Shown here piece by piece: positions 16,502 to 31,000 of a stretch of 64,000 nucleotides of DNA. The stretch lies in the NCBI GenBank assembly GCA_951394405.1, contig OX596335.1, positions 1,240,001 to 1,304,000 on the forward strand, read 5' to 3'. Position 1 is the first letter of the stretch. Each line of letters starts with the position of its first letter. The notes beneath the pieces are model-generated. The model worked only from the letters and a program-made list of their open reading frames with translations, did no database searches and was not told where the DNA came from. A program made the position numbers and the translations under genes. Source of the DNA: Coprinellus micaceus. Lineage: Eukaryota; Basidiomycota; Agaricomycetes; Agaricales; Psathyrellaceae.

Positions 16502-17851
16502 ATGCTGACTGGAAGTGGAATCAAAATCTTTGCTGGTACGTTCAGGTTCTCGGTCTTGTGTCCAACAAACTCATGAATCCTCTCCAGGGACAAGCCATCC
16601 CGAGTTGGCAGAAATTATTGCTCGACGGTACCTACCTCAGCACAGTGCCCACGCCCTCGAACTCATCCCTTCCCCCTCCTTGCCCCGCATTCCAGGATAG
16701 GCCTCCCCCTCGGAAAGGCAGAGGTCCACCGCAGCGCCATCGGCGAGACGACTGTTACGATTCGCGAATCCGTCCGGGAAGACGATGTGTACATTATCAA
16801 TACGGGGTGCGGAGCCGTCAACACCGCTCTCATGGAGCTCTGCATCATGGTCCATGCCTGCAAGATTGCAAGCGCCAAACGGATTACAGCAGTCATTCCG
16901 TTGTTCCCCTACGCCAGGCAAGACAAGAAGGATAAGAGTAGGGCTCCGATCACTGCGAAGCTCGTCGCGAACATGCTCCAAAAGTCGGGTTGCGACCATG
17001 TCATCGTGAGTGCTCCAAGCTCCTCCCTCCTCTCCTAGCCCCCAGAGCTAATGGTTCCATCGTACGATGCAGACCATGGATTTGCATGCTTCCCAAATCC
17101 AAGGCTTCTTTGACGTTCCGGTCGACAAGTGAGTTAACCTTGGAAGCTGGTTGGCCTCCTCACTGACCGTTACGGTTTCTTGCTTCTCGACATTAGTGTG
17201 AGTTGCTCTTTTTCCAGATCACATCTGGCTTATGGTGATCTGACCCTCCTGTCTGGAATATTCGGGTCCAGTTGTACGCAGAACCGTCTATCATTCTGTA
17301 CATTCGCACGCACTTTGACCTCAGCGACGTGGTGATTGTCTCGCCCGATGCGGGAGGAGCGAAACGGTAAGCCAGTGCTTCTCCATCCCCGCTTCTGGCA
17401 ACAAAGGCTGAGCCTAGGGTGCAGGGCAACGTCCATTGCGGACCGCCTAGGAGTAGACTTTGCGCTGTTCCACAAAGAGCGCAAAAAGGCCAACGAGGTG
17501 TCGCGGATGGTGCTTGTGGGGAACTGCAGGGACAAGATCGCGATTCTGGTGGATGACATGGCTGACACCTGTGGGACACTGTGCTTGGCGGCATCACATC
17601 TCTCGGAAGCGGGAGCCACGAAGGTGTTTGCGTTCGTTACACACGGCATCCTGAGCGGGAATGCGCTGAAGAGTGTGGAGGCGAGCACACTGGAGAAGCT
17701 GATTGTGACGAACACGCTCCCGCAGCAGAAAAACCAGGCGGCGTGCAGTAAAATCGAGGTGCTGGACATTGGGAAGGTGCTCGGGGAGGTTATTCGACGG
17801 AGCCACTACGGGGAGAGTGTATCGAAGCTGTTCCACGAAGTACCATACTAA
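16502..17851 (+). CDS. PRS1: Ribose-phosphate pyrophosphokinase (PRPP synthetase)
   Basis: Makes PRPP from ribose-5-phosphate and ATP for purine, pyrimidine, His, Trp and NAD synthesis. The spliced product is 320 aa, the family's usual size. Exons: 16502-16535, 16588-16627, 16696-17005, 17073-17128, a single base at 17197, 17272-17366, 17425-17851. Motifs: [38 protein letters not shown], the metal site region [39 protein letters not shown], the basic loop [11 protein letters not shown], and the PRPP loop [12 protein letters not shown]. The one-base exon completes the Asn of conserved DNLYAEP. The stretch [11 protein letters not shown] replaces the more usual CGEINDNLMEL, a divergence within this family. 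PRS paralogues form hetero-complexes in yeast; which paralogue this is cannot be told, so the symbol is nominal. Confidence 0.95.
17197..17197 (+). other. Predicted single-nucleotide exon of the PRPP synthetase gene
   Basis: Exon 4 ends GAC AA before GTGAGTT at 17129, and the next large exon begins TTG TAC GCA (L-Y-A) at 17272. One base is missing to encode the invariant D-N-L-Y-A-E-P. A lone T at 17197 sits between CATTAG (17191-17196) and GTGAGTT (17198 on) and supplies AAT (Asn). It leaves introns of 68 and 74 nt and a total coding length divisible by three. Confidence 0.75.
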
Positions 17852-18085: not shown

Positions 18086-21000
18086 ATGTACGCTGCCACG
18101 GCCCACCACAACCATGTACTCCCTGCCAACGGCTACACCGACCCCCACATCCCCCACCACGGCCCCCACCACAACCACAACCACAACCACCATCCAGCAC
18201 ACCCCGCGGCGGCGACCAACTCGACGGCGGCGGCCCCACATCCTCCTCCTCACCCCCAGCCCCACCCGCCTCCCCAGCCACCCCCGACCAGGTCCAACAC
18301 CAGAGGACTACCGCCCCTCAGGGAGACCATCACGACAGTCGGCGTCCCCAGCGTCACAATCCAGAACGACCGCCTCTCCGTTGGAGATGCCCAGAGCAGT
18401 GCGTGCCCTCCTTTCCTCATCGTCTTCTATCCACGTAGAATCGTCGCTCATTCGCCGCCTTATCGTCGCTAGGTTCAACACGCTCCTACACGCCTATCAA
18501 GGTCCTCGGCGATGGCTCGTTTGGCACAGTGCTACTGTGCGACTGGCATGGCACGCTCCCTCCGAATACACCACTGTCGCCGATGCAATGCGGGCAGGGG
18601 GCACGGCCAGAGTGGGCTGGGAAACGGCTGGTAGCGGTGAAGCGGATGAAGAAGCGGTGGGAGGGGGGTTGGGAGGAGTGCTCCAAACTGAAAGAGCTCG
18701 AGGTGCGTCGCCTTCACTGACCGTCTATTCCTGGTTTTTTTGACATGGGGCGTACGGTAGTCGCTGCGAGCCATCCCATTTCACGAGAACATCATTCCTC
18801 TCTACGACTTTTTTCTGCTCCCAGCGACAAAGGAGCTCTACTTTGTATTCGAATCCATGGAGGGCAACCTGTACCATCTCATCAAGGCTCGCAAAGGACG
18901 ACCGTTTGCAGGAGGACTCGTTTCATCTATTTTTCGACAAGTCACATCTGGCCTTCACCACATTCACGCGCACGGCTACTTTCACCGCGATATGAAACCC
19001 GAGAACGTCCTCGTCACGACCGTCGGCCTTTTTGACTACACCCCCGTCTCACCAGTCGCTCCGCCAAACGCCTCCAAGGAAAAGGATGTCGTTGCCATCA
19101 TCAAGCTGGCAGACTTTGGCCTCGCGCGCGAAACGAATAGTCGCCCCCCGTACACGGAGTACGTCTCAACACGTTGGTACCGGGCACCCGAGGTACTGCT
19201 GCTGAGCCGAGAATACTCAAATCCGGTGGACATGTGGGCGTTGGGCACCATCATGGCCGAGTTGGTGAACCTCAGGCCGCTCTTCCCAGGGCAGGATCAG
19301 GTCGATCAGGTTGCGAGGATATGCGAGGTTCTGGGGGATCCTTCCGATGGTTATGGCTACGATATGAGCGGAAGTATCATCGGAGGGGGTGCTTGGCCGC
19401 GAGGGATTCGACTAGCGAGGGATGTGGGATTTCAGTTTCCTCAGGTGAGTTCTTCGCCATTAAGCTTGCATTCATCTGCTTAGGAGCTCCTTTAGACCGC
19501 ACCAAGGGATTTTTTCTCGTTATTCGACAAGTCGGTGCCCCGCTCGCTCATTCAGTGCATACGGGACTTGCTACGTTACGACCCCGATAAGCGGCTAACC
19601 ACGAAGGAGTGCTTGGAACACGAGTATCTTCGGGAAACCTCGCCGAAGAATGATATCCCTCTGCCTTCTGGACTCAAGGGTTCGATATCGCAGACGTCAA
19701 TACCAATGATGTCGTCGAACATGAACGGCAATTCCTCGCATCCCTCCCTCTCCTCGCATACGCCCCGCAATGTCCCTCCATCACATTCACACTCCACCCA
19801 CCACCAACATCTCCATCCACATCCCCCTCCCGTACCCGACGTTCCACGCCATCTTCCCCAACCCATCCCTGTGCATGCGCAAAATGGACACCGCAATCAA
19901 CCCATTGCTTCGTGGTCAACATCTCCCACTCAACCGCCACATCCGTCAGACTATGCGATGGATATCTCAGATCCTTCGAAACCTTATACCAACGGCCACG
20001 CCAACCCAGGTCCTACGATGGTACCCGAGTTCACAGGACCACCTCGTGTGGAGTCAGACCAGCAGGGAAGACCACCACCGCATGCCCAACCTCCCAAATC
20101 CAAACTTCCAGGACTTTCTTTTGGCAGCAAGAAAAGCAAATGGGGCTTGGGAATGTTCGGCGGGGACAAGGCGCACCAATTGCCTCCTGTTGATGAAACA
20201 ACTGCGCTCGGGACACGGAAGCGATCCCAATCAACGAGCACAGACAGCAAGTCAATACGAGAGCTTTCACCGTCTAGGGAGCCCATTCAGGACCCTAGGG
20301 AGCTCGAGAAGCTCAAGAAGAAGGAAGCCGAACGAGTCAACCGGGAGGCTGAGAAGGCTCGCCGGAAAATTGCTGAGCAAATGCATCGTGAACAGGCTCG
20401 TGCCGTCATGCATAAGCGTAATCGCATGCTTCAGCAACAGGTTGCCCGTGGGGAGGAAATCGAATGGTCGAATGCCAACGAGCAGAGAGTGGAGTTGGGA
20501 GAAAAGCCGAAGTTGGGTGTTTCCGGTCCTATCAGGCAGAAGAGTGTTGGGAATCTGGGCAACATTCCAACTGTTGGTGCTGCAGGTGGCAGGTATGCCT
20601 CGCCGCCCGTAGAGCCCGTCCCTCCTCTGGGCGACCATCGATATCGGGATTGGAGAGGTAATACGACGGCTGAACGCGTCACGAAGGCTCGGAGACGGGA
20701 TTTCGATGACGACCATTCCATGTCTTCGTCAGATGTCCAGAGTCTCAGCAGGGTATCGTCAATATCCTTTGCGACTGTCGACAGCGATCCGGGACCCTCG
20801 AGGCTGCGGCATCATCCAAGCCTCTTCGGTATCAGCTCACGGACATCACGATCTTCATTGCGAACTTCATTCGACGAATTCTCTCCATCTGTTCGCTCAT
20901 CAAACTCTTTCTCATTAGAAGGCTCTTCCTCCCTCGCGCACGACTTCCACGCACAGCTCAGTGTAAATCCCCACCACCTCGGCGGGAGTGTATCACCCCC

Positions 21001-21526
21001 TCCACTCCATATGCTCTCATTATCCCCGACGCTCTCCCCGACACTTTCACCCTCCCCTCCGTGGGGCGTGCAACAGGACGGCAAGGATCCAGGTCTCGAC
21101 CTGAAGTCACCGCCCTACATTTCCATCCAAAACGCATCCCATCCGCCAAGCAGTCCTCTGGATATGCATGCTTACTTGCATGGACGCCGAAGCCCACACC
21201 GTGCGCACTCACCGTATTCGCGACCGCTTCGATCAGGGCATTCCTCCCATTCCGCCAAGTCAGCTATCAATCCAATATTCAAGGTGGTGAGTACCAATGA
21301 CGTGCACTTTGGCTTCATAACACTAACATTTTCCTCGCAGCCCCCCGTTCCTCCAATACCTCCAATACCGCCATTACCCCCTTCGAACAATTACGACCAC
21401 AGCATCCCCCCGCCCAGCTCTCATAGTGTACTTCCTCCATTTTCAGAGTTGGAGGCTGTTGCTGGGGGCGACTATTCGCCCCTCGCACCCATGTCATTTA
21501 GTATACCTCCGGAGGACGAGGTTTAG
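18086..21526 (+). CDS. Ime2/MAK/ICK (RCK-family) protein kinase, possible meiotic or morphogenetic regulator
   Basis: Exons 18086-18398, 18473-18702, 18761-19444, 19496-21286 and 21341-21526 give 1067 aa. An N-terminal ~100 residues rich in His, Pro and Asn precede the kinase domain. The Gly loop is LGDGSFGTV (~residue 118), followed by the VAVKRMKK lysine, catalytic HRDMKPEN (~256), DFGLA (~298) and an activation loop YTEYVSTRWYRAPE with a T-E-Y dual phospho-motif. This combination marks the RCK group (yeast Ime2, Ustilago Crk1, animal MAK/ICK). The kinase core has an insert between HRDMKPEN and DFG (VSPVAPPNASKEKD). The ~620-residue tail is disordered, with a basic coiled stretch (EKLKKKEAERVNREAEKARR) and poly-Pro near the end. 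The last intron (21287-21340) is 54 nt without an in-frame stop, so its retention would add 18 residues. A role in meiosis or morphogenesis is inferred from the family. Confidence 0.88.
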
Positions 21527-29969: not shown

Positions 29970-31000
29970 CTTCTTGCTTGCGCTAGGGCGAGTTAGAATA
30001 CGGTAATTGAACGACAGGTTAGGAGGGGGCTCAGATGACAGCACTGATGGGTCAGAATTTGTACACACTCCCTATATCTCGCTTCATTTCAAGCTGGGGG
30101 CGATCCCGTCTTCGTCGGCCAAAGTTGACCTTGTTTTGTGGCTGCGACACGTACGGCCCGTTGTGTTAGCTCCAAAGAGAGTTGGCTTTTGGGCGCTTAA
30201 CCTTCGCCACATCAATTGCACCCCTCCGGCGAGTTTCCAGCGCTCTCCCCTTCGACATCCGCAGAGTCGGTTGGAATGTGCTTCTATAGTGATTGGTCTG
30301 CGAAGGCGCTTTCTGCGCACAGGCCGCTCGGCCGAGTGTCACTGTACACTCCTGTGCTCTCCGTGGTCGCACCAAGCGCGTTCTCTTCGTATCAGAGAAT
30401 CTTCAAGGGGGTTTGATTAGCGCTCGCACTGATACGCGAGCGCGAGTCCATGGAGCAGAGCCCGGCCTTGAAAAATCCGGGATGTCAATTCAGCCGTTTA
30501 GACAGGGTGTCCAGGAGGAGGCAGGGCCACCCGCAGGAGGAAACTCGCGAATGAGCTTGGCACCTCCTGCACTTTCTCCGCTTCTAGAAAGCGGCAAAGG
30601 ATAAATTTCCAAAGACTCACGCTATTTCTATTGAATGTCCCTGAGATGGTGAGTAGGAATCTAATGAAAAGCTTAACTGACGGCCATAGTTACGAACCTT
30701 TTAGACGAACTTGCCACGCTTGGCGCATTCCGCGCTTTTTGCACTTGAGAGCACCTGCCAACGCCTGTCAAAGCGCTGGCAAGCGGATTGGTAAAATTCT
30801 GATGGCCACTGGGAACGGAAAGGCAGTGGAACCGCCCACAAGTATCCATTGGGGGACATCCTCATCTTCGGCGCGATGGAACGCTGATACGTGTATGGGG
30901 TGAAGGTCTGAAGCCTCCGTTATGACGGAGAACCCACAAAGGCCCACCAATATATTCAGTCCTGAGATGGCCATAAACCGATGAAGTAAAACCGTACCTT
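29970..31000. other. Gap between the membrane-protein gene and the HSP104 5' copy
   Basis: No gene could be supported. The segment nearest 31000 should correspond to the HSP104 first intron and exon 2 if the duplication extended that far. A stretch reading LHPIHVSAFHRAEDED near 30870-30920 (minus) is only vaguely like a Clp N-domain, so I do not call it. Confidence 0.3.

What the first reader, a model, noticed from the sequence alone, without database searches (positions are those of the whole stretch)
17129..17271. Single-nucleotide exon in the PRPP synthetase gene
Conserved D-N-L-Y-A-E-P can be encoded only if one base, T at 17197, is spliced between GAC-AA (exon end 17128) and TTG-TAC (17272). 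The T is flanked by CATTAG and GTGAGTT, giving two normal-sized introns (68 and 74 nt) that both begin GTGAGTT. The full coding length then becomes 321 codons in frame, the family's size. Two-step splicing would explain it: after the first intron leaves, AAT abuts GTGAGTT and recreates a strong donor. One-nucleotide exons have been reported only very rarely in eukaryotes. No other GT/AG pairing in the interval that I tried restores the frame and the motif.
Basis: partly seen in the sequence, partly recalled or inferred. Interest (0 to 1): 0.88.

Follow-up and report, generated by a model that had tools for sequence, protein, structure and literature searches.

The report
One-letter exon in a mushroom gene
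A core metabolic gene of an inky-cap-like mushroom seems to contain an exon of just one DNA letter between two introns, and most of the related public gene models looked at break at exactly that spot, which suggests that the one-letter exon is old, widely shared and generally overlooked.

Summary
In this PRPP synthetase gene (16502-17851) introns 17129-17196 (68 nt) and 17198-17271 (74 nt) flank the single T at 17197; with it the gene reads as 320 aa with the conserved DNLYAEP. Within the tested bounds no other GT/GC-AG scheme, and no single excision with any ends, gives DNLYAEP. Relatives make a sequencing error unlikely: among the 120 nearest proteins listed, 52 of 57 held by NCBI/UniRef/nr are aberrant at exactly this junction (VDN deleted, VDK, VDKW, VDNVSD, YYS ...), whereas of 63 from short, transcript-like contigs 62 read VDN and one VDS. 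Pleurotus ostreatus and Postia placenta models differ from contig proteins at one residue of 320: this one, K for N. Most wrong forms are what software unable to place a 1-nt exon would produce. The deleted form reaches Tremellomycetes, Ustilaginomycotina and Pucciniomycotina, so the exon may be as old as Basidiomycota. One-nucleotide exons are already known (plant APC11, VPS55; Fusarium CYP621A). No RNA reads and no genomic DNA of other species could be examined here.

The parts
16502..17851 (+). PRPP synthetase (ribose-phosphate pyrophosphokinase) gene, coding span with stop; 7 coding exons including the 1-nt exon; 320 aa
   Evidence: Joined translation without internal stops; match to human PRPS1 in the PDB, E 1.3e-132; 98% identical to a Coprinellus micaceus protein
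16536..16587 (+). intron (52 nt)
16628..16695 (+). intron (68 nt)
17006..17072 (+). intron (67 nt)
17073..17128 (+). exon ending GTC-GAC-AA (V-D and the first two bases of the Asn147 codon)
17129..17196 (+). intron upstream of the 1-nt exon (68 nt): GTGAGTT ... CTCAC at 17159 ... CATTAG
17197..17197 (+). the single-nucleotide exon: T, third base of AAT (Asn147 = human PRPS1 Asn144)
17198..17271 (+). intron downstream of the 1-nt exon (74 nt): GTGAGTT ... CTGAC at 17240 ... TCCAG
17272..17366 (+). exon beginning TTG-TAC-GCA-GAA-CCG (L-Y-A-E-P)
17367..17424 (+). intron (58 nt)
17121..17122 (+). GT of the Val145 codon (GTC): the false in-frame donor that would give the V-D-N-less model
   Evidence: 17121-17271 gives GFFDVP-LYAEP, 317 aa, the form seen in 59 of 128 proteins held by NCBI/UniRef/nr

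Best explanation
The T at 17197 is a real one-nucleotide exon, probably constitutive. Two ordinary short spliceosomal introns (68 and 74 nt) lie one base apart, at phase 2 and phase 0 of the Asn147 codon. They must be removed one after the other, since the acceptor of the first and the donor of the second cannot be bound at the same time (inferred): most simply intron 17129-17196 leaves first, joining AA to T, and then AAT|GTGAGTT is spliced to the acceptor at 17271; the reverse order would give the same mRNA. The product is AAT, Asn147 (human Asn144), and an in-frame 320-aa enzyme. Joining the first donor straight to the last acceptor drops the T, shifts the frame and stops at codon 168, presumably a target of nonsense-mediated decay (inferred). 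The arrangement does not look peculiar to this genome: protein models suggest that it is shared at least across Agaricomycetes (inferred).
For: Only this scheme gives the motif. The protein aligns with human PRPS1 over residues 6-319 with D-N-L-Y-A-E-P in register. Among the 120 nearest proteins listed, 52 of 57 held by NCBI/UniRef/nr are aberrant at this junction; of 63 held only as jgi/lgn contigs 62 read VDN and 1 VDS. The Pleurotus ostreatus model P0083 against contig protein P0071, and the Postia placenta model P0087 against P0081, differ at residue 147 alone (K vs N) of 320; K is what the G of the donor gives when the extra base is forced next to GAC-AA, and four non-canonical excisions here give exactly DKLY. 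Models of Tricholomella, Lyophyllum (VDNVSD) and Rhizopogon (VDNVS) can be read as AAY-GTG-AGY, the one base followed by the second donor taken as exon; models of two Leucocoprinus and of Macrolepiota (YS or YYS before L) as AGY, the first acceptor plus the one base, with the second donor used (my reading of protein letters). VDKW and VDKY fit a donor four bases downstream, again one base modulo 3 (my reading). The other four introns of the gene are 52-68 nt, against 143 nt for the one-intron reading.
Against: No RNA from this species and no genomic DNA of another species was seen. Five models in the untargeted set (Laccaria bicolor, Moniliophthora roreri, Marasmius oreades, two of Taiwanofungus camphoratus) read VDN; how their coordinates achieve that is unknown. 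VDKC, VDKLLFQ and VDNWSMLNIRPQ are not fully explained. One ascomycete model (Cladophialophora immunda, P0182) also lacks V-D-N, so the deleted form alone does not prove shared ancestry. Annotation of Cryptococcus neoformans var. grubii used RNA-seq with a microexon search (passage of PMC3990503); the other Cryptococcus models that I saw (P0152, P0154, P0155) all have the deleted form, so a real deletion in that lineage is not excluded. A bare AG-Y-GT at a suitable place is expected in 8% of such stretches.
Confidence: 0.95

Rival explanations
1. Assembly error: one base (for example one T of a TTT at the start of the 3' exon) is missing, and the true structure is a single 143-nt intron.
For: A third T before TG would also give GAC-AA|T-TTG. 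Nothing in the window alone excludes it, and raw reads were not available.
Against: 52 of 57 models held by NCBI/UniRef/nr in the untargeted set are aberrant at the same codon, including Coprinellus micaceus at 98% identity. A 143-nt intron would be more than twice the other four (52-68 nt) and would by chance have to hold a well-placed YAG-Y-GTRAGT (0.029% of random 143-mers).
Confidence: 0.02
2. One intron with non-canonical ends (TG-AG 17130-17271, or GT-CA 17129-17270) and a real Lys at position 147.
For: Gives an in-frame D-K-L-Y; 42 of 128 proteins held by NCBI/UniRef/nr read VDK (41 followed by L, one by C).
Against: 0 of 105 jgi/lgn-only proteins have K (0 of 63 in the untargeted set). 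For P. ostreatus and P. placenta the contig proteins identical at the other 319 residues have N. Introns with full GT-AG ends are on offer.
Confidence: 0.015
3. The weak canonical donor is the true one: V-D-N is really missing from the mRNA (17121-17271, 317 aa), as 59 of 128 models in public databases say.
For: In frame, GT-AG; common in annotation.
Against: 0 of 105 jgi/lgn-only proteins lack V-D-N. Human PRPS1 keeps the motif, and Asn144 is among allosteric-site residues called strictly conserved in eukaryotes (passage of PMC5395218). A Val codon always begins with GT, so this fallback is always at hand to a gene finder.
Confidence: 0.01
4. A pseudogene or dispensable paralog with a frameshift.
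For: A second PRS gene exists at G000:C5:3728931-3729227; its V-D-N-L is uninterrupted.
Against: The rest of the protein is intact and 98% identical to that of C. micaceus; the same break shows in models of many species.
Confidence: 0.005

Closest known systems
Single-nucleotide exon of Arabidopsis APC11 (PMC4674806, part 1 of 3 read) and the 1-nt microexons of APC11 and VPS55 in land plants (PMC8831610, passages)
   Same: One nucleotide between two introns, needed for the frame, missing from reference annotations, conserved over a large clade; donor GTRAGT conserved at VPS55.
   Different: Plants and other genes; in Arabidopsis APC11 the intronic stretch is 422 nt. Shown by cDNA, RNA-seq and RT-PCR and, for APC11, by mutants in protoplasts; here only sequence and protein comparison.
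Single-nucleotide exon of CYP621A in Fusarium (PMC12940212, abstract and parts 1 and 2 of 3 read)
   Same: Fungal nuclear gene; 1-nt exon inside a conserved motif; a 139-nt apparent intron in F. graminearum that is really two; nearly all public models wrong at the spot. The authors call it the first for a fungal gene.
   Different: Ascomycete, one P450 subfamily of one genus, base G (AG-G-GT), middle base of a Gly codon, confirmed by reads. Here T, third base of an Asn codon, in a core metabolic gene, with signs of the same arrangement in many basidiomycetes.
Stwintrons (spliceosomal twin introns), e.g. [D1,2] (PMC5639578, passages)
   Same: Two introns at one place that must be removed in succession.
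   Different: A stwintron leaves no nucleotide behind; here one coding base is kept, and net removal of 17129-17271 would break the frame.
Recursive splice sites (zero-nucleotide exons, AG|GT; recalled, from no call)
   Same: An acceptor next to a donor, used one after the other.
   Different: Here one base separates AG and GT and stays in the mRNA.

Membership tests
single-nucleotide exon (1-nt microexon) | one genomic base flanked by a canonical acceptor AG and donor GT, with normal-sized introns on both sides | tested here: met
   CATTAG-T-GTGAGTT; introns 68 and 74 nt; CTNAY motifs with the A 34 nt and 28 nt before the intron ends
single-nucleotide exon (1-nt microexon) | the base is required for the reading frame and a conserved motif | tested here: met
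   only this scheme gives DNLYAEP; without it a stop at codon 168
single-nucleotide exon (1-nt microexon) | the base is present in mature mRNA of this gene | not testable with these tools
   no reads held; the nearest jgi/lgn-only protein, P0003 (94% identical), has VDNL
single-nucleotide exon (1-nt microexon) | conserved in relatives | tested here: inconclusive
   52 of 57 models of relatives are aberrant at the site, but no foreign genomic DNA could be read; DNA pattern scans gave 0
[D1,2] stwintron | internal intron splits the external donor between bases 1 and 2, so that the stretch starts GG, and nothing is retained | tested here: not met
   the stretch starts A|GT at 17129; no single net excision gives DNLY
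zero-nucleotide recursive splice site | AG directly abuts GT | tested here: not met
   AG-T-GT at 17195-17199
class I eukaryotic PRPP synthetase | full-length match to a solved member | tested here: met
   human PRPS1, residues 6-319 of the query, E 1.3e-132

The most novel reading that the evidence does not exclude
The one-nucleotide exon was already present in the PRPP synthetase gene of the common ancestor of Basidiomycota and has been kept, one base between two introns, in mushrooms, jelly fungi, smuts and relatives of the rusts, unnoticed because gene finders cannot draw it. It could also act as a fail-safe: an mRNA that skips the base is frameshifted and destroyed, which ties PRPP supply to splicing fidelity.
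Probability: 0.6. Interest if true: 0.85.

Novelty: new member of a known kind. Interest (0 to 1): 0.74.

Why it matters
It would be a further nuclear one-nucleotide exon in fungi (the authors of the Fusarium paper call theirs the first for a fungal gene) and, within the searches made here, the first in Basidiomycota: in a core metabolic gene and with a spread that looks far wider than one genus. It gives a test bed in tractable mushrooms for how a spliceosome handles an acceptor and a donor one base apart. It also says that the PRPP synthetase models of most annotated relatives sampled here are wrong at a residue of an allosteric site, and it suggests a cheap way to find more such exons: look for families whose gene models fail at one codon while transcripts do not.

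Tried and rejected
Looked for the locus as DNA elsewhere: a degenerate [11 protein letters not shown] pattern gave 0 stretches in viral contigs and 0 in genome contigs; scans of metagenome contigs are capped at 0 and were not asked for. Looked for copies of the intron pair in the own genome: only itself, so it is not a repeated intron family that this search could see. The other YAGNGTRAGT of the window (30615-30624, minus strand) was set aside as expected by number; one frame has an open stretch of about 63 codons across it and no homology was tested. AT-AC introns: two keep the frame, neither gives the motif. Literature: full-text searches (14 papers; 10; 7; 3; 14; 1; 2) listed no title or abstract on a one-nucleotide exon in a PRPP synthetase or in a nuclear gene of a basidiomycete; apart from the papers named in this report I saw these papers in listings only, several of them hold the terms for mitochondrial genes of fungi and placozoans, and subscription journals are largely not held. 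The PRPS evolution paper PMC12238573 (passages) tells of a conserved splice junction but the passages do not say which.

Biases: the untargeted list holds 120 of 7,992 matching proteins and its query itself reads VDN. Searches were aimed at the deleted form and at VDK, so the pooled tallies are enriched for those forms. From I count, by name, 124 basidiomycete proteins among the 128 (setting aside two animals, P0121 and P0208, and two ascomycetes, P0233 and P0182), of which 6 read VDN-L and 118 do not; only six lineages were looked up. The jgi/lgn-only proteins bear no organism names, so that they are basidiomycetes is inferred from identity; among the 42 added a few come from contigs longer than 2 kb.

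Full report
What the sequence shows. The gene starts at ATG 16502 and its stop ends at 17851. With introns 16536-16587, 16628-16695, 17006-17072, 17129-17196, 17198-17271 and 17367-17424 (52, 68, 67, 68, 74 and 58 nt) it reads as 320 aa without an internal stop. The protein aligns over residues 6-319 with human PRPS1, with D-N-L-Y-A-E-P in register; query residue 147 is human 144. The exon before the site ends GAC-AA, the one after it begins TTG-TAC, and between the two introns stands a single T.

Is another reading possible? I enumerated GT/GC-AG choices over the interval (donors 17090-17264, acceptors up to 17299, introns of 40 nt or more): three one-intron and sixteen two-intron schemes keep the frame without a stop, and only the 1-nt exon scheme gives DNLYAEP. 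Allowing any end dinucleotides, no single excision starting at 17100-17199 gives DNLYAEP and four give DKLYAEP. AT-AC ends do not help. Dropping the T gives a stop at codon 168; retaining intron 17198-17271 a stop at 193; retaining both introns a stop at 148.

Chance. YAGNGTRAGT occurs twice on the two strands of the window, 1.58 expected, so the motif is not rare as such. In 200,000 random 143-mers of the same composition, a bare AG-Y-GT leaving both parts at least 45 nt long occurs in 8.0%, so the bare signal is weak evidence; YAG-Y-GTRAGT occurs in 0.029%, and with a CTNAY motif near the end of both parts in 0.005%.

Where it comes from. The window lies in an assembly of 50.3 Mb in 17 contigs. 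The nearest proteins are of Coprinellus micaceus (98%), C. aureogranulatus (96%) and, among named ones, Ephemerocybe angulata (95%), so this is probably an agaric close to or within Coprinellus (Agaricales, Psathyrellaceae). The assembly has a second match to the PRS N-terminal domain, on C5, in which V-D-N-L is uninterrupted. The intron pair itself was found only once.

Relatives: the decisive part. Of the 120 best of 7,992 proteins, 57 are held by NCBI, UniRef or nr (annotated genomes, by their names and contig lengths) and 63 only as jgi or lgn contigs. At the site the 57 read: VDKL 22, V-D-N missing 17, VDNL 5, VDKWL 4, VDNVSDL 2, and seven single forms (VDNWSMLNIRPQL, VDNLYYSL, RGYYSL, FGYSL, VDKLLFQL, VDKC, VDNVSL). 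The 63 read VDNL 62 and VDSL 1. So 52 of 57 models made from genomic DNA are aberrant at this codon, and the sequences that look like transcripts are not. That the 63 are transcripts is inferred: their longest contigs are under 2 kb and the frame is uninterrupted although the gene in this window has six introns. An open frame was needed for them to be found at all; but a real VDK or a real deletion would also have left the frame open, and neither was seen.

Most wrong forms have a simple cause if the true structure is GAC-AA | intron | Y | intron | YTN. V-D-N missing: the V codon always starts with GT and lies in the frame that a one-intron model needs; in this window it is 17121-17271. VDK: an aligner that cannot place the single base puts it next to GAC-AA, where the genome has the G of the donor; in this window the matching excision is 17130-17271. 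VDKW and VDKY: consistent with a second GT four bases into the donor. VDNVSD and VDNVS: the first intron is spliced and the one base is read on into the second donor, AAY-GTG-AGY. YS or YYS before L: the first acceptor and the one base are read as AGY, and the second donor is then used. The last two classes would show the two halves of the 1-nt exon separately. These readings are mine, from protein letters, without the DNA; VDKC, VDKLLFQ and the C. aureogranulatus form are not fully explained.

Pairs that look like one species. The Pleurotus ostreatus model P0083 and contig protein P0071 differ at one residue of 320, and so do the Postia placenta model P0087 and contig protein P0081 (113 contigs): residue 147, K against N. 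This speaks against a real Lys and a non-canonical intron.

Reach. Two further searches were aimed at the deleted form and at VDK; pooled with the first there are 233 proteins. Held by NCBI/UniRef/nr, 128: V-D-N missing 59, VDK 42 (one of them VDKC), VDN 9 (two animals, one ascomycete, six basidiomycetes), VDKW 7, VDKY 3, others 8. Held only as jgi/lgn contigs, 105: VDN 104, VDS 1. The deleted form appears in Russulales, Hymenochaetales, Polyporales, Boletales and Auriculariales (orders recalled from the names), Cantharellales, in Tremellomycetes (Naematelia; also Cryptococcus, Kwoniella and Naganishia by name), Ustilaginomycotina (Tilletiopsis; Tilletia by name) and Pucciniomycotina (Cystobasidium); VDK appears in Sphaerobolus (Phallomycetidae). 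This points to an origin before the split of the three subphyla. Against it: the deleted form also occurs in one ascomycete (P0182), where it may have another cause, and at least one Cryptococcus genome was annotated with RNA-seq and a microexon search (PMC3990503, passage), although the Cryptococcus models seen here have the deleted form. I hold the deep date at about 0.6.

Mechanism. Shown: canonical sites, frame, motif, and the break in models of relatives. Inferred: two successive splicing reactions. The match of the second donor to CAGGTAAGT is 5 of 9 before and 6 of 9 after the first intron is removed, a small help to the order first-then-second; the opposite order is not excluded. Also inferred: decay of mRNAs that skip the base.

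Known cases. One-nucleotide exons were shown in Arabidopsis APC11 (PMC4674806, part 1 of 3), found conserved over land plants in APC11 and VPS55 (PMC8831610, passages), and in Fusarium CYP621A with reads (PMC12940212, abstract and parts 1 and 2 of 3). A one-base exon is also reported in placozoan mitochondrial cox1 (PMC5436844, listing only), and papers on fungal mitochondrial genomes hold the term (for example PMC12308204, listing only). A 2011 survey noted 1-bp exons in annotations without experimental support (PMC3064661, passage). So the kind is known; the gene, the phylum and the breadth in fungi appear new within the searches named. Asn144 of human PRPS1 is among residues of an allosteric site called strictly conserved in eukaryotes (PMC5395218, passage), although one contig protein here has Ser; N144S is listed among variants of relapsed leukaemia (PMC7403961, table passage).

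Limits. No RNA reads, no DNA of other species, no raw reads of this assembly. The verdict on this gene rests on enumeration plus the proteins of relatives.

Noticed in passing
30615-30624 (minus strand): The only other YAGNGTRAGT of the window (TAGCGTGAGT). About as many are expected by chance; one frame is open for about 63 codons across it, and no homology was tested.
   Followed up: partly
L001 (G000:C5:3727431-3730727): Second PRPP synthetase gene of the genome, with uninterrupted V-D-N-L-W where the window's gene has the two introns.
   Followed up: partly
P0182 (Cladophialophora immunda): An ascomycete model that also lacks V-D-N (GFFDIP-LYAE); either the same exon is older than Basidiomycota or this is another mis-modelled intron.
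   Followed up: no
P0192: A contig-only relative whose longest contig is 32 kb yet reads uninterrupted through VDNLYAEP: possibly a lineage without these introns.
   Followed up: no
about 18439-21526: Downstream gene on the same strand encoding a protein kinase (DMKPENVLV, STRWYRAPEVLL) with a long tail; read by eye from the ORF list.
   Followed up: no
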